A stretch of DNA of 64,000 nucleotides from Gemmatimonadaceae bacterium (GTDB taxonomy: Bacteria; Gemmatimonadota; Gemmatimonadetes; Gemmatimonadales; Gemmatimonadaceae), in contig JADZAN010000046.1 of NCBI GenBank assembly GCA_020852815.1, positions 62,001 to 126,000 of the forward strand, in the 5' to 3' direction. Positions 13,875 to 42,119 of this stretch are shown here, in pieces. The position numbers and the translations under genes were made by a program. Each line of letters begins with the position of its first letter. Position 1 is the first letter of the stretch. The notes beneath the pieces are model-generated. The model was given only the letters and a program-made list of their open reading frames with translations, was not told the DNA's origin and searched no databases.

Positions 13875-14705
13875 TCACAACCCCCGCACCACCGCCTCCA
13901 CCAGCCGCTCGAAGTCGTGCGCGGCAACCTTCGTCACCTCGATCACCTCGGCATGGTTGATGGGGTGCGGGCTCGTCCCCGCCGCGGGGTTCGTGATGCA
14001 GCTGACGGCGGCGCAGCGCATCCCCATCGCTCGCGCCACCATCACCTCGTGCACCGTCGACATCCCCACGGCGTCCGCCCCCAGGCGCTCGAGCATCCGC
14101 ACCTCGGCCGGTGTCTCGTACGTCGGCCCCAGCAAGCCGCAGTACACCCCCTCCTCAAGCCGGATGCCGAGCGAGCGCGCGCACTCGTGCAGCTGGCGGA
14201 TGAGCGCCGGGTCGTACGGGTTCGACATGTCGGGAAAGCGCGCATCGCCCGGCACCACGCCGCCAATGAGCGGGTTGCGGAACATCAGGTTGATGTGGTC
14301 GGCGACGATCATCAACTGTCCCGGCCTGAACGTGCGGCGGATGCCGCCGGCCGCATTGGAGAGGATGAGCGTCGGCGCGCCGAGCGCGTGCACGACGCGC
14401 ACGGGAAACGCCGAGTGATCGCCCTCGTGCCCCTCGTACATGTGGAAGCGGCCGGCGAGGGCGAGCACCTCGCGCCCTCCAAGCGTCCCGTGCAGGAGTT
14501 GGCCGGCATGCCCTTCCACGCTGGGCTCGGCAAAACCGGGAATGTCGCGATACGAGACGCGCGTGGCTCCCTCGATGCGCGCCGCCAACCCTCCCAATCC
14601 GGAGCCCAGGACGATGGCCGCCACCGGCGAGCGCACAGGGAGCCGCCCACGCAGGAAGGTGGTCGCCTGGTCGAGACGGTCGTGTGCAGCGGAACGGTCA
14701 GGCAT
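13875..14705 (-). CDS. purine nucleoside phosphorylase (trimeric type)
   Basis: PNP splits inosine, guanosine and deoxy forms with phosphate into free base and (deoxy)ribose 1-phosphate. The 276-residue protein has AIVLGSGLGGLA, the phosphate-binding GRFHMYEGH, LILSNAAGGI, YCGLLGPTYETPAEVRML and VGMSTVHEVMVARAMGM, all family I PNP motifs. The start ATG overlaps the end of add by 8 nt. It closes an operon that begins with an extracytoplasmic 5'-nucleotidase, consistent with salvage of external purine nucleotides. Released deoxyribose phosphate could feed the DeoC aldolase encoded at 39691, after phosphopentomutase, which is not in this window. Confidence 0.93.
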   Translation of the reverse strand: MPDRSAAHDRLDQATTFLRGRLPVRSPVAAIVLGSGLGGLAARIEGATRVSYRDIPGFAEPSVEGHAGQLLHGTLGGREVLALAGRFHMYEGHEGDHSAFPVRVVHALGAPTLILSNAAGGIRRTFRPGQLMIVADHINLMFRNPLIGGVVPGDARFPDMSNPYDPALIRQLHECARSLGIRLEEGVYCGLLGPTYETPAEVRMLERLGADAVGMSTVHEVMVARAMGMRCAAVSCITNPAAGTSPHPINHAEVIEVTKVAAHDFERLVEAVVRGL

Positions 14706-15738
14706 CACGCAACGCCTCGATCTCGGTGCGGGCACGCTGGAGGAGCGCCTCACGTTCGCGCTCGGGGAGGAAGGCGCTGGCGAAGCCGTTGAGCGCAATC
14801 GCCGACAGTTCATCGAAGTCGAAACCCAGCGAGCCGGCGGCGTGCTGATACTCGTCCACGAGGTTGGTCCCGCTCATGAGGCGGTTGTCGGTGTTGAGGA
14901 CGACGTTGAGCCCCTGGTCGTAGTACTGTCGCAGCGGGTGCGTCTCGTACGAGCGCGCGGCGTGCGTCTGCACGTTACTCGTCAGGCAGATCTCGAGCGC
15001 GATGCGCGCGTCGTTCACTTCCTGCACCAGCGAGGGATCCTCGAACAGTCGCGTTGCATGCCCGATGCGACAGGCACCACAGGCATGCACCGCCTGCCAG
15101 ACCGACGCAGCGCCGTCGCCCTCACCGGCATGGCAGGTGCACGCCAGGCCGTGGGACTGTGCGTATTTGAACGCCTCGGCGTGGGCCGACGCGGGGTGCC
15201 CCACCTCGCCACCCGCGAGGTCGAAGCCGACGACTCCCTGGTCCTTGTAGTCGACGGCGAGGCGCGCCAGGTCCATCGAGGTGGCGGGGGGGAGGTGGCG
15301 CAGCGAGCAGACCAGCACGCGGGCCACGATGTCGTGGTCGCGCTGCGCCCTGGCCAGGCCGCGCAGCGGCGCCTCGACCGCCTGGCCTAACGACAGGCCG
15401 CCGGCGACGTTGAGGATCGGCGCGTAGCGCACCTCGAGGTAGCGTACGCCTTCCGCGGCGGCATCCTCGGCCAGTTCGTAGGCGATGCGCTCCAGCGACT
15501 CGGCCGTCTGCATCACCGAGAGCGTCGTCTCGAAGCGCGTGAGGTAGTCCTCCAGCGTGCGCGCGTCGGTGACGAGCATGTAGTCGGCGAGCGCCTCGGC
15601 GTCGTCGCGCGGCATGGCCACGCGTGCCTCGCGCGCGAGGTCGAGCATCGTCTCCGGGCGCAGCGACCCGTCGAGATGGCAATGCAGTTCGGCTTTGGGG
15701 AGTCGCTCGAGCAGCGTGCGGGTGATGACGCGTGCCAT
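14698..15738 (-). CDS. add: adenosine deaminase
   Basis: The 346-residue enzyme deaminates (deoxy)adenosine to (deoxy)inosine. Zinc ligands and active-site residues are visible: AELHCHLDGSL near 17-27, CHAGEGDG near 200, IGHATRL and NTDNRLMSGT near 290. The residue after the zinc-binding Asp is Asn rather than the common second Asp (NTDD in the Escherichia coli and mammalian enzymes). I recall the NTDNRLMS form from actinobacterial and related deaminases, so it is probably a subfamily trait. It lies 5 nt after the 85-residue ORF and overlaps pnp. Confidence 0.93.
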   Translation of the reverse strand: MARVITRTLLERLPKAELHCHLDGSLRPETMLDLAREARVAMPRDDAEALADYMLVTDARTLEDYLTRFETTLSVMQTAESLERIAYELAEDAAAEGVRYLEVRYAPILNVAGGLSLGQAVEAPLRGLARAQRDHDIVARVLVCSLRHLPPATSMDLARLAVDYKDQGVVGFDLAGGEVGHPASAHAEAFKYAQSHGLACTCHAGEGDGAASVWQAVHACGACRIGHATRLFEDPSLVQEVNDARIALEICLTSNVQTHAARSYETHPLRQYYDQGLNVVLNTDNRLMSGTNLVDEYQHAAGSLGFDFDELSAIALNGFASAFLPEREREALLQRARTEIEALRDA

Positions 15739-15743
15739 GCTCG

Positions 15744-16001
15744 TCAGGCGTCCTCGCCAGCTGCACCGTTGGCGCCTGCGGACCCGCGTTGCCGGTTGGC
15801 GACCACGCGGAAGATCGCGCCAGCGAAGACGGGGGCATTCGACTCGAGCGGGAGCCCGCGCGAATCGGTCACCAGCCGCTCGCCGGCAACGATCGCCTCG
15901 GCGAGCGCGGCGTCGACCAGGCGCACCGCATCGACCGGGGTTCCATTGGCCGGGGCATCGACGCCGCGGCCATTCACGTACACGCGCACCGTGGCGCTCA
16001 T
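15744..16001 (-). CDS. conserved-looking 85-residue protein in the purine-salvage operon
   Basis: I do not recognise this protein. It is 85 residues, starts MSATVRVYVNGRGVDAPANG, has no signal peptide or membrane helix, and alternates short hydrophobic strands and Gly/Pro turns (FAGAIFRVVANRQRG) before an Ala/Gly/Glu tail. A beta-grasp (ThiS/MoaD-like) fold is conceivable from the start, but there is no terminal Gly-Gly. Its ATG overlaps the 5'-nucleotidase stop by 4 nt and it ends 5 nt before add, so it is co-translated with purine-salvage enzymes. It could be a regulator or small-molecule-binding partner. Confidence 0.65.
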   Translation of the reverse strand: MSATVRVYVNGRGVDAPANGTPVDAVRLVDAALAEAIVAGERLVTDSRGLPLESNAPVFAGAIFRVVANRQRGSAGANGAAGEDA

Positions 16002-19000
16002 GGCTTGGAGAGGGGGATGAGGCGCGCGTCGCTGGGGGCGCGCACCGGTTGCGGGCGCGTGCGCAGGTACTGCGCGAGCGCGTCCAGGTCGGACATCCGG
16101 AGGTCGACGACTTTCGCTGCGCGCTTGGCGAGCGAGAGGCCGTCGCCGCCCATCAGGATGAAGTCGAGCGTGACGAGGGTGTACAACTGCCGGGCGTTGA
16201 CCGGGCGTCCATCGCTGAAGGTGAGCGAGGTGACGCGCTGCCCTGCCGGCCGTGCCGGATCGTAGGTGACCTTCACGCCGCTCAGGTGCATTCGCACGTT
16301 GGAGGTATCGACGATCTCTTCCAACAGGCGTCGCAGGTCGCGCCCGAGCACGTGCACGCGCATGAGCGAGTTGCCGAACGGTTCCACCTCGAACAGCTTC
16401 CCCAGCGTGACCCAACCGGCATACAGCGGGGCGCGCACGCCGCCGCTGTTCATCAATCCCACGTCACCCTTCCCCACCGTGCGAAACGCATCGGCAATGA
16501 GGTTGCCCAGCGTCCCCGATGCCCCCGCGTTCATCCGCTCGGCGATCTCGGCGACCGGCTTGTCGTAAATGGCGTTGGCGCGGGCGAGGACAGAGTCGGT
16601 GTAGGCAGCTGACGGCCGGTCGGCGGCGACCGAGTCACGCCAGACGTTGCGTACGATGACCGGCGGTGCCTCCGCGCTCGAGAGCGGGATGTCGATGACC
16701 CCCACCGCGGAGCCGCGCGAGTACGCCTGCACGATCGGGATTCCCTTCACGCGCGTGGCCACGCCGGAATGCGTGTGTCCACTGACGATCGCGTCGATCT
16801 TCTCGGTGACGGCGTTGGCCAGGTCGACGATCTCGCCGTTGCAGCCGTCGAGGCTCCGGCGGTCGCAGAAGGCGCCGGCGTGAGCGATGACGACCACCAC
16901 GTGGGCCCCGCGTGCGCGCAGCGCGCGCGCGCGTTCGTCCACGACGCGCGCCGGGTTGGTAAAGCGCAGCCCCACGACGTTGGTCGCCTTGGTGGTGGTC
17001 GGGGTCTCCACAGTGGCCACACCGATCACGCCGACCCTGACGCCCTGCACATCGACGAGCGTGTCGTTGCGAATCCACGGGACGTCGCGGCCGGCGCTGT
17101 CGGTCACGTTGGCGCCGAGGATGGCGTACGGCGCCTGGCGCATGCGCGCCTTGAGCGAATCGACTCCCCAGTCGAACTCGTGGTTGCCTAACGCCGAGGC
17201 CACCAGCCCGTGCCGCGCGAAGAGCGAGACGACGCTGGCGCCGTAGGTGATGTTGGACGCCGGCGTCCCCTGGAACTCGTCGCCGCCATCGAGCCAGAGG
17301 GAGGCGCAGGTGGGCGCCTGACATTCACGGCGCGCCTGCTCGATGGCCCCGATGAACCACGGCGCGCCCCCCCGCAGCACGCCGTTGTTGTCGGCGCGCG
17401 CCTCGAAAGCGCCATGGAAGTCGTTGGTGGCTATGACGCGGAGCCAGCGCCCACTCGTCAGGCGGTTGGCGGCAGCTGACGGCCGGCGCGTGGTTCCGCT
17501 GGCGTCGAATGCGCTCGCGTGCATGCCCCGGTACGCCGCGTCGGCCGCACCCGACGGCTCCAGCGCCCAGTTGCGCACGGCGAAGTCGTCCGGGCGCAAC
17601 GTCCCGCGGCGGCGCACTTCCGCAATGAGGAGGTCGCGGATCTCCTCCTGCTTGTCGTAGATGAGCGGCGCATCGCGCAGCATCGCGTAGCCGCCCCCGC
17701 CCGTCTGCCGGTAGTTGTTCAGCGCCAGCGTGAACGAGTCGGTGTCGGCCACGTCGCGCCCCTTCACCTGCAGGCGCGTGACGCGGCTCCCGATGGGGCG
17801 AGAGATGTCGATGGTGTAGTCCGCGCCGGCCACGATGTCGAAGTTGTAACCGGGCACCGTGGGATCGGTGGGCGACTGCGCCGCCTCCGGTGTCCCCGCG
17901 GTGCGATAGTAGCGCGATGAGTACTCGAGATACTCGCGCAGCTGCTTCCCGGTGATGCGCACCGCGCGCAGCGTGTTGTCGTACGGATACAAGCGCGCCA
18001 CCTCGGCCACCGTTACCGGACCGGCGTCGAGCGAGGCGCCGATGTCGAAAGCGGCGGTCGAGGCCAGGTCGGTCCCCGCCGCCTGGCGCTGCGTTTCCAG
18101 GATGAAGTCGATGAGTGGCGTGTCGCGCACGCGCGCCGAGTCGGCGCGCCAGGGCACCGGCGTGGTGCCTAACGTCTGGTTCACCCAGCGCACCGTCTGC
18201 TCATGGGCGCGCTGCGTGACGGCGAGGACGGCCGGATGCTCGGCGTGACCAGCGTCGCGCACGATCTGGCCGCGCGTGCGCGCCACCGTCCACGCCGCTC
18301 CATCGTGCGTGAGCGTCATCGTCGCCAGCGCCACCGACGTTGCCCAGTTGCGCGCCTGCACGATCGTCACGCCGTTGATGGCGGTGTCGGCGACTTCCTT
18401 GTGCGAGTGCCCGATGACGATGAGGTGCACCCCGGGGACTTCACGCGCGATGCGCGCCCCGACGTTCTCGCTGGGGAGCCCCGTGGACACCGTGTCGTAG
18501 CTGGCCGGCTCGCCGAGCCCCGAGTGGACGACGACGACGACCGCGTCGGAGCGCCGGCGCACCGCCTGCACCTCGCGCCCGACTTCCGTCACGATGTCCT
18601 TCAGCTGCAACCTGCCGGCGACGTTGTCGCGGTCCCACACCAGCACCCCGGGGGTCGTGGCCCCCACGATCCCGATGCGCACGCCGCCGCGCTGCACCAC
18701 CGTCGACGCCGGATACGCGCGCTGGCCGTTGGTGCGGAAGGTGTTGGCAGAGAGGAAGGGGAACGTTGCCTGCGCGACGGCCTTGTCGAGCGTCGGCAGG
18801 CCGTAGTTGAACTCGTGGTTGCCCAGCGCCGCGGCGTCGTACTGCATCGCGTTCATCGCCGCGATGACCGGGTGCGGCGCCGCCGTGTCGATGCGCGCCG
18901 CGACATAGGTCAGCGGATTGCCCTGCAGCAGGTCGCCGGCGTCGACGAGGACGACATGCCCAGGGCGGGCCTTGCGCACCGAGTCGACGATGGTGGCGGA

Positions 19001-19291
19001 GCGCGTCAGGCCGCGCAGTGTGTCGGCGGCATCGGCGTAGTAGTCCCACCCGCGCAGGCGCCCGTGGACGTCGGTGGTGGCGGCGACGATGATGACTGTC
19101 GAGTCGCCGGCCTTGGCGGTTGGGGCGGCGGCGGATGCCGAAGCTGACGCGGGGCGCGCCGTGGACGAGGCACAGCCACACAGCGCGACCGCCGCCAGCG
19201 CGGCGAGCAGGGAAAGGCGGGGGGCGACAATCGCTCGGCGGCGCCCTTCCCGACGCACGACGCGCGGGAGGGCCATAACGGGGTGACGCAT
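15998..19291 (-). CDS. two-module 5'-nucleotidase / 2',3'-cyclic phosphodiesterase lipoprotein (YfkN-like)
   Basis: A 1097-residue lipoprotein (signal then lipobox LCGC near 40) holding two complete calcineurin-type nucleotidase units. Unit 1 (about 65-600) has TTDVHGRL, DAGDLLQG, GNHEFNYG, GHSHKEV and a C-terminal part resembling CpdB (NNYRQTGGGGY). Unit 2 (about 645-1090) has TNDFHGAF, DGGDEFQG, GNHEFDWG, SGHTHSG and a UshA-like C-terminal domain. Bacillus YfkN has the same cyclic-phosphodiesterase plus nucleotidase layout. It probably dephosphorylates external nucleotides so that add and pnp can process the nucleosides. Metal ligands look intact in both units. An in-frame ATG at 19276 is an alternative start. 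Confidence 0.9.
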   Translation of the reverse strand: MRHPVMALPRVVRREGRRRAIVAPRLSLLAALAAVALCGCASSTARPASASASAAAPTAKAGDSTVIIVAATTDVHGRLRGWDYYADAADTLRGLTRSATIVDSVRKARPGHVVLVDAGDLLQGNPLTYVAARIDTAAPHPVIAAMNAMQYDAAALGNHEFNYGLPTLDKAVAQATFPFLSANTFRTNGQRAYPASTVVQRGGVRIGIVGATTPGVLVWDRDNVAGRLQLKDIVTEVGREVQAVRRRSDAVVVVVHSGLGEPASYDTVSTGLPSENVGARIAREVPGVHLIVIGHSHKEVADTAINGVTIVQARNWATSVALATMTLTHDGAAWTVARTRGQIVRDAGHAEHPAVLAVTQRAHEQTVRWVNQTLGTTPVPWRADSARVRDTPLIDFILETQRQAAGTDLASTAAFDIGASLDAGPVTVAEVARLYPYDNTLRAVRITGKQLREYLEYSSRYYRTAGTPEAAQSPTDPTVPGYNFDIVAGADYTIDISRPIGSRVTRLQVKGRDVADTDSFTLALNNYRQTGGGGYAMLRDAPLIYDKQEEIRDLLIAEVRRRGTLRPDDFAVRNWALEPSGAADAAYRGMHASAFDASGTTRRPSAAANRLTSGRWLRVIATNDFHGAFEARADNNGVLRGGAPWFIGAIEQARRECQAPTCASLWLDGGDEFQGTPASNITYGASVVSLFARHGLVASALGNHEFDWGVDSLKARMRQAPYAILGANVTDSAGRDVPWIRNDTLVDVQGVRVGVIGVATVETPTTTKATNVVGLRFTNPARVVDERARALRARGAHVVVVIAHAGAFCDRRSLDGCNGEIVDLANAVTEKIDAIVSGHTHSGVATRVKGIPIVQAYSRGSAVGVIDIPLSSAEAPPVIVRNVWRDSVAADRPSAAYTDSVLARANAIYDKPVAEIAERMNAGASGTLGNLIADAFRTVGKGDVGLMNSGGVRAPLYAGWVTLGKLFEVEPFGNSLMRVHVLGRDLRRLLEEIVDTSNVRMHLSGVKVTYDPARPAGQRVTSLTFSDGRPVNARQLYTLVTLDFILMGGDGLSLAKRAAKVVDLRMSDLDALAQYLRTRPQPVRAPSDARLIPLSKP

Positions 19292-39690: not shown

Positions 39691-40644
39691 TCAGTACGGT
39701 CCCGCTGCGTGCGACCCGGTGGCGCAGGTCGCACACCCCGTGGAGTGCTGCGACGCCAGCGACAGGAGGTCGTTGAGGGGGAGCGGCCCCTGCCCCAGGC
39801 ACTTGGCCATCGAGACCCCGCTCGACGTCCCGATGCGGGTGGCGCCGTTGGCGATCATCTTGAGCGCCGCCTCGCAGTCGCGCACGCCACCCGACGCCTT
39901 GACCCCCATCGCGTCCCCCACCACGAGGCGCATCAGCGCCACCGCCTCGGCGCTCGCACCGCCGGCGGCGTGGAAGCCGGTCGACGTCTTCACGTACTGC
40001 GCGCGCATCTCCTTGGCGATCGCGCACACCTTGATGATCTCCACCGGCGACAGCGCCGCCGATTCGATGATCACCTTCACCAGGCGCCCCTGCGCCCCCT
40101 CGACCACGGCGGCGATGTCGTCGGCCACGTGAGCCCAGTCGCCGCTCTTGAGGTGCCCCAGCGCGATCACCATGTCGAGCTCCGTCGCACCGTGCTCCAC
40201 GGCCAGCGCCGCCTCGCGTCGCTTGATCTCGGAGGTGTTGGCGCCTAACGGGAAGCCGATCACCGTCGCCACCTGCACCGGGGTGCCGCGCAACCGCTGG
40301 GCGCAGCGGCGCACCCAGACCGGGTTCACGCAGACCGCGGCGAAGCGGTGCTCCTTGGCCTCGTCGCACAGCTTGTCGATCTCGCTGGCGGTCGCCTCGG
40401 CCTTGAGCAGCGTATGATCGATGAAGTCGGCCATGCGCGCGTTCTGGCGCACGAAGGTGACGCCGGGCGGGGCACCGGGTGTACCGCCGGCGCCGCCAGC
40501 GCTGGTGGCCGCGTTGGCCACGTTGGCCGCGTTGGCCGCGTTTGCCGCGTTGGCCGCGCTAGCCGCGTTGGCCGCGGTGGCGCGATCCCCCGCCGCCAAC
40601 TCGCGCGCGATCTCGCGCGCCAACGCCTGCAATCTCTCCGTCAC
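39691..40644 (-). CDS. deoC: deoxyribose-phosphate aldolase with an encapsulation-peptide-like N-terminus
   Basis: DeoC splits 2-deoxyribose 5-phosphate into acetaldehyde and glyceraldehyde 3-phosphate. The catalytic core starts near residue 72 (DFIDHTLLKAEAT) and has D157 (ATELDMVI), Schiff-base K219 (YVKTSTGFH) and K249 (GVKASGGVRD). The 70-residue extension is unusual: residues 3-18 (ERLQALAREIARELAA) form an amphipathic helix, followed by a flexible Ala/Asn/Gly linker. This is the layout of peptides that target enzymes into bacterial microcompartments. The tail has CATCATG. The GTG start overlaps a EutN/CcmL gene. Conserved residues look intact. Confidence 0.92.
   Translation of the reverse strand: MTERLQALAREIARELAAGDRATAANAASAANAANAANAANVANAATSAGGAGGTPGAPPGVTFVRQNARMADFIDHTLLKAEATASEIDKLCDEAKEHRFAAVCVNPVWVRRCAQRLRGTPVQVATVIGFPLGANTSEIKRREAALAVEHGATELDMVIALGHLKSGDWAHVADDIAAVVEGAQGRLVKVIIESAALSPVEIIKVCAIAKEMRAQYVKTSTGFHAAGGASAEAVALMRLVVGDAMGVKASGGVRDCEAALKMIANGATRIGTSSGVSMAKCLGQGPLPLNDLLSLASQHSTGCATCATGSHAAGPY
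40504..40584. repeat. 9-nt tandem repeat encoding the DeoC linker
   Basis: About nine imperfect copies of GTTGGCCGC (plus strand) encode the (Ala-Ala-Asn)n linker of DeoC. The unit length keeps frame, so copy-number change would lengthen or shorten the linker without damage. Confidence 0.75.
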
Positions 40645-40937
40645 CGTCCCTCCTCCGGGACTTCGCCGTCTTCCAGGTCCACGCGATCCACCACCCCCAC
40701 CACCACCGCCTGCGCCGGGATGCGCGCGCTCTTCGACAGCGACCGCGCCGCCCCCCCTTCCTGCACCACAAGGACGCGCTCCCCAACCCCGACGCCAACA
40801 ACGTCCAGCGCCACAATCTCCGCCCCCTCCTCGTCCCCCACCGTCGTCAGGCGACGGATGAGCAGGAGCTTTCGCCCGGCCAGCTCGCCATGCCGGTGCG
40901 TGGCCACCACCTCACCCACGACGCGCGCGATGAACAT
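40641..40937 (-). CDS. EutN/CcmL-family microcompartment vertex protein (copy adjacent to deoC)
   Basis: These proteins form pentamers that cap the vertices of icosahedral bacterial microcompartments. The 98-residue product matches the fold and motifs: MFIARVVGEVVATHRHGELAGRKLL at the start, then VALDVVGVGVGERVLVVQEGGAARSL and AVVVGVVDRVDL. Its stop overlaps the deoC start (GTGA), so vertex protein and aldolase are co-translated. No BMC hexamer gene is visible in the window. Confidence 0.88.
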   Translation of the reverse strand: MFIARVVGEVVATHRHGELAGRKLLLIRRLTTVGDEEGAEIVALDVVGVGVGERVLVVQEGGAARSLSKSARIPAQAVVVGVVDRVDLEDGEVPEEGR

Positions 40938-40979
40938 CGTCAGCGCCCCGCAGGCGTCAGCGGCCCGGACCGGAGGGCG

Positions 40980-41300
40980 CTACGCATCGAGCGTCCGCAC
41001 GGGCACCCCGCCTTCAGCCGCCGCTTCGCCCTTGGGCACCACGTGGCACCAGTCGACCTTGGCCACGATCCCCGCGTCCACCGCCGCCAGCGGCTCCTCC
41101 AGCGTCATGGCCGCCTCGCGCGAGGTGATGTAGACGACCACCTCCCCCGGCCCCACCCCCACGCGATCGATCGCCACGATGGGCTTCCCCGCCGGCTCAC
41201 CAGTGGCGGTGAGCGGCTGGATCCACTGCAGCGGAATCGCCGTCAGCGTCTCCTGCTTCACCGTCGCCACGAGGCGTCCCATCACGCGCGCCAGATGCAT
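40980..41300 (-). CDS. EutN/CcmL-family microcompartment vertex protein (second copy)
   Basis: The 106-residue product starts MHLARVMGRLVATVKQETL and contains WIQPLTATG, IVAIDRVGVGPGEVVVYI and AVDAGIVAKVDWCHV, the EutN/CcmL pattern. It diverges considerably from the 40641-40937 copy, so the two probably fill different positions. It lies 42 nt upstream of that gene and 48 nt after the rhomboid stop, so an operon is likely. Confidence 0.87.
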   Translation of the reverse strand: MHLARVMGRLVATVKQETLTAIPLQWIQPLTATGEPAGKPIVAIDRVGVGPGEVVVYITSREAAMTLEEPLAAVDAGIVAKVDWCHVVPKGEAAAEGGVPVRTLDA

Positions 41301-41348: not shown

Positions 41349-42119
41349 TCAGTCAAAGACGCGCCGAGCATCGGAGACCGCGCGCCGCCGCCGCACGAAC
41401 TCGCGATCCTGGAAGAAGCGGATCAGCACCACGCCGGCCACGAAGCCTCCCACGTGCGCCCAGACCGCGACGCCGCCCGACACCTCGCGCCGCAGCGACA
41501 TCAACTGCGGAAGCCCGCTCAGCACCTGCAGCCCGAACCACCACAGCAAAACGATCCACGCCCGGATGTGCACGATGAGCGGGTAGATGATGATCGGGAT
41601 CAGCATCTTGACCCGCACGTGCGGATAGAGGACGAGGTACGCCCCCATGATCCCCGAAATGGCCCCCGACGCCCCCACTGTCGGCACGGGCGAGGTAGGG
41701 TCGAGCGCCACGTGCGCCCCCGCCGCCGCCAGCCCGCACAAGAGATAGAAGGCGAGGAAGCGCACATGCCCCATGCTGTCCTCGACGTTGTTCCCGAAGA
41801 CCCAGAAGAAGAGGCAGTTCCCCAGCAGGTGCATCCAGCTCCCGTGCAGGAACATCGAGATCAGCGGCGTCAGCACATTGATGGGCTGCGCGTCCACCGA
41901 GCATGCCATCCCCGGGCCGATCGGCACCGCCTCGCCCAGCGGCGCCATCCGTGTCACCTCACCCGGCACCATCCCCAGGTCGCAGACCGTCGCCGCCAGG
42001 CGCGTCGCGTCCATCCCGCCCCCCTGCACCAGGACCCACACCCCCACCGTGACGGCCAGGAGGAGGTACGTCATGTACGGCGTGTCGAGCGTCGGGTTGT
42101 CGTCGCTGAGCGGGATCAT
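41349..42119 (-). CDS. rhomboid-family intramembrane serine protease
   Basis: The 256-residue protein has about six membrane helices with the rhomboid catalytic serine in VGASGAISGIMGAY and the histidine in AVWAHVGGFVAG. The conserved HGSWMHLLGNCLFFWVFGNNVED is in the first half. Rhomboids cleave membrane-anchored substrates. A loop between helix 1 and 2 (about 30-70) is longer than in GlpG and contains two cysteines that could pair outside the cytoplasm. The substrate is unknown. It is divergent from dnaK and may lead the microcompartment genes. Confidence 0.9.
   Translation of the reverse strand: MIPLSDDNPTLDTPYMTYLLLAVTVGVWVLVQGGGMDATRLAATVCDLGMVPGEVTRMAPLGEAVPIGPGMACSVDAQPINVLTPLISMFLHGSWMHLLGNCLFFWVFGNNVEDSMGHVRFLAFYLLCGLAAAGAHVALDPTSPVPTVGASGAISGIMGAYLVLYPHVRVKMLIPIIIYPLIVHIRAWIVLLWWFGLQVLSGLPQLMSLRREVSGGVAVWAHVGGFVAGVVLIRFFQDREFVRRRRAVSDARRVFD

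What the first reader, a model, noticed from the sequence alone, without database searches (positions are those of the whole stretch)
39691..41300. Microcompartment satellite locus: two vertex proteins and a DeoC with a targeting-peptide-like tail
EutN/CcmL genes are specific to bacterial microcompartments. Here two are co-transcribed with a DeoC whose first 18 residues form an amphipathic helix joined by a flexible linker, the typical encapsulation signal. Its products acetaldehyde and glyceraldehyde 3-phosphate include a volatile aldehyde of the kind such shells contain. DeoC-bearing (sugar-phosphate type) microcompartments have been noted in surveys. A locus with vertex proteins but no shell hexamer, aldehyde dehydrogenase or kinase within this window is odd. 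Link to the nucleoside operon at 13875-19291 is an inference.
Basis: partly seen in the sequence, partly recalled or inferred. Interest (0 to 1): 0.7.

Follow-up and report, generated by a model that had tools for sequence, protein, structure and literature searches.

The report
Scattered-gene organelle for deoxyribose breakdown
This locus makes two corner proteins and one tagged enzyme of a protein-shelled bacterial organelle that very probably breaks down the sugar of DNA; its other genes sit at three distant places in the genome, so the usual search for one gene cluster would not show what it does.

Summary
Two BMC-P vertex genes and deoC lie on the minus strand and end at a strong terminator-like hairpin. 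The rest of the genome supplies the missing parts: two BMC-H hexamers, acetylating aldehyde dehydrogenase and PduL in one unit; a third BMC-P overlapping cdd behind deoB; and a shell-type RpiB elsewhere. All three units recur in 13 of 395 genomes of the phylum (Gemmatimonadota), one or two of them in 8 more, often at contig breaks. PduL (18 genomes) and shell-type RpiB (28) occur only in shell-positive genomes. DeoC carries the N-terminal helix in every fragmented-type genome where its N-terminus could be read; in shell-free relatives it is absent or degenerate. PduL shares the helix motif, AldDh has a C-terminal one, and RpiB and PduL carry a roughly 40-residue domain homologous to the EutQ segment reported to bind the shell. 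Best reading: a dispersed SPU-like metabolosome for deoxyribonucleosides, supplying the signature enzyme the literature lacked for 'FRAG' BMCs of this phylum. Corrections: amphipathicity alone is weak evidence, the genome has no acetate kinase, and nothing has been seen in cells.

The parts
39691..40644 (-). deoC, 2-deoxyribose-5-phosphate aldolase with N-terminal encapsulation-peptide-like helix (GTG start)
   Evidence: TIGR00126 255 bits; only DeoC in genome; catalytic Lys219/Lys249 present
40585..40644 (-). DeoC residues 1-20: targeting helix MTERLQALAREIARELAAGD
   Evidence: conserved in 16 fragmented-type orthologues, weak or absent in shell-free relatives, shared motif with PduL N-terminus; helix in AF2 model
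40438..40584 (-). DeoC residues 21-69: Ala/Asn-rich flexible linker, partly a 9-nt tandem repeat
   Evidence: hypervariable (identity 0.15) and low pLDDT
40641..40937 (-). BMC-P vertex protein a (EutN/CcmL)
   Evidence: PF03319 84 bits; stop overlaps deoC start
40980..41300 (-). BMC-P vertex protein b (EutN/CcmL)
   Evidence: PF03319 74 bits
39627..39649 (-). intrinsic-terminator-like hairpin just downstream of deoC
   Evidence: 10-bp stem, 9 GC pairs, T-run
41349..42119 (-). rhomboid-family protease gene, conserved upstream neighbour of deoC with or without the BMC-P pair
   Evidence: PF01694 117 bits; synteny; start MIPLSDD
13875..14813 (-). purine-nucleoside phosphorylase (makes deoxyribose 1-phosphate); pathway-linked, not adjacent here
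   Evidence: NF006054 347 bits; near deoC in six relatives
14698..15738 (-). adenosine deaminase; pathway-linked
   Evidence: TIGR01430 316 bits
15998..19291 (-). two-module 2',3'-cyclic-nucleotide phosphodiesterase/nucleotidase with lipoprotein-like N-terminus; pathway-linked
   Evidence: NF006934-type match 525 bits, below its cut-off

Best explanation
The locus is one of four unlinked parts of a single metabolosome for deoxyribonucleosides. Nucleoside phosphorylase and phosphopentomutase (DeoB) make deoxyribose 5-phosphate in the cytosol. [quoted passage not shown] The co-encapsulated acetylating aldehyde dehydrogenase turns acetaldehyde into acetyl-CoA, and PduL regenerates CoA inside the shell, giving acetyl phosphate. 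As the genome has no acetate kinase, acetyl phosphate is probably turned back into acetyl-CoA outside by the ordinary Pta. The shell is built from two BMC-H and three BMC-P proteins, with no clear trimer protein. An EutQ-like segment on RpiB and PduL probably anchors cargo to the shell. Shown: gene content, conserved layout, co-occurrence, peptide conservation, homology of the EutQ-like segment. Inferred: encapsulation, flux, and the fate of acetyl phosphate.
For: Whole-genome parts: BMC-H x2, BMC-P x3, acetylating AldDh next to PduL, deoB-cdd-BMC-P, shell-type RpiB. All three shell units in 13 genomes of three families, one or two in 8 more. Co-occurrence over 395 genomes: PduL 18/18 in shell-positive genomes, DeoC x shell odds ratio 78; shell-type RpiB 28/28 shell-positive. 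Helix motif: 11-30 bits in 16 fragmented-type DeoCs (leave-one-out) against at most 8.8 in 15 shell-free ones; PduL N-termini score 5-27 with the DeoC matrix against a background mean of -4.9. AldDh C-terminal helix conserved behind variable linkers. RpiB-domain profile finds PduL (1e-9) and E. coli EutQ (1e-5) above all decoys; EutQ helices H1/H2 bind the shell (PMC12487888). No acetate kinase, Pta present.
Against: No experiment. No BMC-T found, which SPU and HO loci normally have. 18 genomes keep a DeoC with no shell, so the enzyme does not need a compartment. Hydrophobic moment of the helix is weak. Other signature enzymes (diol dehydratase, ethanolamine lyase, glycyl-radical enzymes) were not searched for genome-wide. 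RpiB has no obvious step in deoxyribose breakdown.
Confidence: 0.87

Rival explanations
1. DeoC is an ordinary cytosolic enzyme; the two vertex genes were inserted next to it by chance and the N-terminal tail is a functionless or mis-started extension.
For: Shell-free relatives keep rhomboid-deoC in the same order without the BMC-P pair, and most of their DeoCs lack the helix.
Against: The BMC-P/BMC-P/DeoC unit is kept across three families, the tail is conserved more than the linker, tracks shell presence, and shares a motif with PduL.
Confidence: 0.04
2. The genome's microcompartment serves another aldehyde (for example from ethanolamine or a deoxysugar) and DeoC is a minor or accidental passenger.
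For: AldDh best matches the EutE-type acetaldehyde model but below its cut-off; published FRAG BMCs of this phylum had no assigned substrate (PMC8217296).
Against: All three vertex genes sit with deoxyribose genes (deoC; deoB-cdd), AldDh is of the acetaldehyde type, and no other signature enzyme is at any of the shell loci read.
Confidence: 0.06
3. A relic: an old SPU-type operon broken up and on its way to loss, no longer forming a shell.
For: Losses nested in the DeoC tree; G225 and G198 keep a degraded helix without a shell.
Against: All genes are intact, tightly packed with start-stop overlaps, and the same three units are conserved in 13 genomes or more; shell-type RpiB and PduL are not found without shells.
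Confidence: 0.03

Closest known systems
SPU (sugar phosphate utilisation) microcompartments, Axen 2014 (PMC4207490) and Sutter 2021 (PMC8217296)
   Same: DeoC-type aldolase, RpiB, acetylating AldDh, PduL; predicted DNA-sugar catabolism
   Different: Genes in four unlinked places instead of one main locus, no clear BMC-T, third BMC-P behind deoB-cdd; a compact SPU locus is a separate lineage in other members of the phylum
FRAG BMCs of Gemmatimonadetes and other phyla (PMC8217296)
   Same: Shell genes at several places, BMC-P triplet, AldDh near BMC-H, same phylum
   Different: Survey reports no obvious signature enzyme for them; here DeoC and shell-type RpiB supply it
Haliangium ochraceum (HO) type I BMC satellite locus (PMC8217296)
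   Same: Satellite with two BMC-P and an aldolase; some HO DeoC orthologues have an EP-like N-terminus
   Different: HO has BMC-T proteins; none found here
EutQ of the ethanolamine microcompartment (PMC12487888)
   Same: The H1/H2 segment, shown there to bind the shell, is homologous to the RpiB N-terminal and PduL C-terminal domains
   Different: Here it is attached to RpiB and PduL, not to a cupin acetate kinase

Membership tests
SPU microcompartment | DeoC-type aldolase (pfam01791) | tested here: met
   window 39691-40644
SPU microcompartment | RpiB-type isomerase (pfam02502) in the BMC set | tested here: met
   G000:C20:2665-3378, shell-type N-terminal domain; such RpiB only in shell-positive genomes; but unlinked to shell genes
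SPU microcompartment | Main locus holding both BMC-H and BMC-P | tested here: not met
   BMC-H at C10:317.6 kb, BMC-P at C10:207.4 kb and C46:102.7-103.3 kb
SPU microcompartment | BMC-T shell protein | tested here: not met
   only two single-domain PF00936 hits in the genome; a divergent BMC-T like L106:6296-6934 could be missed
FRAG BMC | Shell genes at several genomic places, BMC-P triplet | tested here: met
FRAG BMC | Type-specific shell protein HMM profile (FRAG1-7) | not testable with these tools
   the survey's HMMs and supplements are not held
HO type I BMC | Satellite with two BMC-P plus aldolase | tested here: met
HO type I BMC | BMC-T proteins in the shell set | tested here: not met
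Metabolosome core | Acylating AldDh and phosphotransacylase | tested here: met
   L007:10356-11969 and L007:11966-13093
Metabolosome core | Alcohol dehydrogenase | not tested
   none noticed beside the shell loci read; genome not searched for it
Encapsulation peptide | 15-20 residue terminal helix behind a flexible linker, on several cargo enzymes | tested here: met
   DeoC, PduL (N), AldDh (C)
Encapsulation peptide | Amphipathic | tested here: inconclusive
   hydrophobic moment p 0.045 in this DeoC, not significant in several orthologues
Encapsulation peptide | Directs cargo into shells | not testable with these tools
   needs a cell experiment

The most novel reading that the evidence does not exclude
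In this organelle the shell-binding half of EutQ has been turned into a portable anchor: a roughly 40-residue EutQ-H1/H2-like domain on RpiB and on PduL ties the enzyme core to the BMC-H sheet, so a metabolosome encoded at four unlinked places assembles without a BMC-T protein or a dedicated scaffold. RpiB would then be kept mainly for its anchoring role.
Probability: 0.35. Interest if true: 0.68.

Novelty: new variant of a known kind. Interest (0 to 1): 0.56.

Why it matters
Microcompartment types are recognised by gene clusters; scattered ones were left without a function. Here conserved co-occurrence, layout and targeting signals give a FRAG-like microcompartment of a widespread soil and sediment phylum a substrate, a full pathway and testable cargo signals. 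It also offers a natural experiment: related genomes with and without the shell around the same enzyme at the same chromosomal position, and it points to the EutQ shell-binding segment as a module used by other enzymes.

Tried and rejected
A first RpiB survey failed and was repeated. Amphipathicity by hydrophobic moment was tried as proof of a targeting peptide and rejected as too weak. Pfam and PDB sequence searches of the BMC-H2 C-terminal 50 residues gave nothing significant (a SAP domain at E 0.49 is only a hint); Foldseek matched BMC-domain structures in all rows shown. The genome-contig scan returned one close relative, a Gemmatimonadetes MAG with 80% identical DeoC, and distant DeoCs. 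The PduL-only profile did not reach EutQ significantly (E 0.28); the RpiB profile did. Weak aldolase hits (E about 1e-14 to 1e-25) in most genomes were taken as paralogues and excluded with a cut at E 1e-40; this also leaves out a few diverged DeoCs at about 1e-35.

Full report
What is at the coordinates. On the minus strand lie a rhomboid protease gene (41349-42119), two EutN/CcmL vertex genes (40980-41300 and 40641-40937) and deoC (39691-40644). The GTG of deoC overlaps the TGA of the vertex gene before it, and a strong terminator-like hairpin follows deoC. DeoC is an equivalog-level deoxyribose-phosphate aldolase, the only one in the genome, with its catalytic lysine motifs intact. Its 75-residue extension consists of a conserved helix and a hypervariable linker (part of it a 9-nt tandem repeat) ahead of the barrel.

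The missing parts are elsewhere in the genome. PF00936 finds two hexamer genes at C10:317.6 kb. They overlap each other and are followed by an acetylating aldehyde dehydrogenase and a PduL phosphotransacylase, again with start-stop overlap. A third vertex gene at C10:207.4 kb starts inside the stop of cytidine deaminase, itself behind phosphopentomutase. A fourth place (C20) holds an RpiB with an extra N-terminal domain. So phosphopentomutase before DeoC, and the two reactions after it, are encoded beside shell genes. The genome lacks acetate kinase but has an ordinary phosphate acetyltransferase, which suggests that acetyl phosphate leaving the shell is converted back to acetyl-CoA; this step is inference.

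The layout is conserved. Over 395 genomes of the phylum, 36 have shell genes. Thirteen show all three units: [rhomboid-]BMC-P-BMC-P-DeoC, alr-deoB-cdd-BMC-P, and BMC-H-BMC-H-AldDh(-PduL). They come from three families, and some are cut by contig ends. Eight more show one or two of the units, mostly in incomplete assemblies or at contig breaks, one of them from a fourth family. PduL occurs in 18 genomes, every one shell-positive. RpiB of the shell type (145 bits or more) occurs in 28 genomes, every one shell-positive (Fisher p 5e-36). DeoC at E below 1e-40 occurs in 47 genomes, 29 of them shell-positive (odds ratio 78). Several shell-positive genomes without a full DeoC are incomplete or break at that place. 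These tests treat genomes as independent, which they are not. Other members of the phylum hold a compact SPU locus (in G020: RpiB-DeoC-divergent BMC-T-BMC-H-BMC-P-AldDh-BMC-T-BMC-P-BMC-P, with TIM on the other strand). In the DeoC tree the compact type groups with Acidobacteriota and other phyla, while the fragmented type follows the host families, with shell-free relatives nested among them. The fragmented system therefore looks vertically inherited with losses, and the compact one looks laterally acquired; the deep forks of the tree are weak.

The targeting signals. Sixteen DeoCs of fragmented-type genomes begin with a helix of the form x-E-L-x-x-L-A-x-x-I-A-x-x-L. A position matrix of this helix, leave-one-out, scores them 11-30 bits; 15 DeoCs of shell-free relatives score at most 8.8 (Mann-Whitney p 1e-6, not corrected for relatedness). 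The same matrix, made from DeoC only, scores the PduL N-termini 5-27 against a mean of -4.9 for 368 other N-termini, several of whose best scorers are themselves BMC cargo enzymes. AldDh instead ends in a conserved V-x-x-I-V-x-D-F-L-A helix behind a variable linker. Two shell-free genomes, G225 and G198, keep a weak version of the DeoC helix, as expected after recent loss. The hydrophobic moment alone is poor evidence.

An EutQ-like segment. The N-terminal domain of the shell-type RpiB and the C-terminal 40 residues of PduL align as LVTERDV...G...LTPAARDRARALGL. A profile made from RpiB sequences only finds PduL at 1e-9, E. coli EutQ at 1e-5 and EutT at 5e-3 (scaled to a proteome of 4300), with all shuffled decoys below. 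In Salmonella the matching EutQ helices H1/H2 bind the shell while H3/H4 bind cargo peptides (PMC12487888), and encapsulation peptides have been placed in grooves between shell tiles (PMC11157265). A role as shell anchor in this organelle is an inference by homology.

What it is and is not. It works like an SPU metabolosome and shares its enzymes. It does not meet the SPU main-locus layout and no BMC-T was found. It fits the description of FRAG BMCs, which a 2021 survey reported in Gemmatimonadetes among types without an obvious signature enzyme (PMC8217296). [quoted passage not shown] What is new here is the assignment of DeoC, RpiB and the deoB-cdd link to the scattered type, with shell-free relatives as controls.

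Limits. The survey samples the phylum evenly but includes incomplete genomes. Nothing was tested in cells.

Noticed in passing
L007:9866-10342: The second BMC-H carries a conserved 50-residue C-terminal helical domain (KVVELR..AR...FP.KGR...A.R.E.L..F) with no Pfam match; weakly SAP-like, which would suggest nucleic-acid or peptide binding on the shell.
   Followed up: partly
L134:4228-4812 and L135:6669-7304: In two genomes of another family (G096, G177) a BMC-H has a different C-terminal extension that looks like a winged-helix tail (EutK-like, from memory); these genomes seem to hold a third BMC arrangement.
   Followed up: no
L162:2320-13088: In G378 about 11 kb separates the two vertex genes that are adjacent elsewhere; possible insertion.
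   Followed up: no
window 40508-40588: The DeoC linker is encoded by a 9-nt tandem repeat (Asn-Ala-Ala units), a likely source of fast linker-length change.
   Followed up: partly
window 39691-39760 (DeoC C-terminus): DeoC orthologues share a C-terminal tail H-x3-C-x(2-5)-C ending in Tyr; traces are seen in shell-free relatives too, so it is not clearly shell-specific. Function unknown.
   Followed up: no
window 41349-42119: A rhomboid protease gene is the conserved upstream neighbour of deoC with or without the vertex genes; the reason is unclear.
   Followed up: no
window 13875-19291: PNP, adenosine deaminase and a large two-module cyclic-nucleotide phosphodiesterase/nucleotidase form a run; PNP lies close to deoC in six relatives.
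   Followed up: partly
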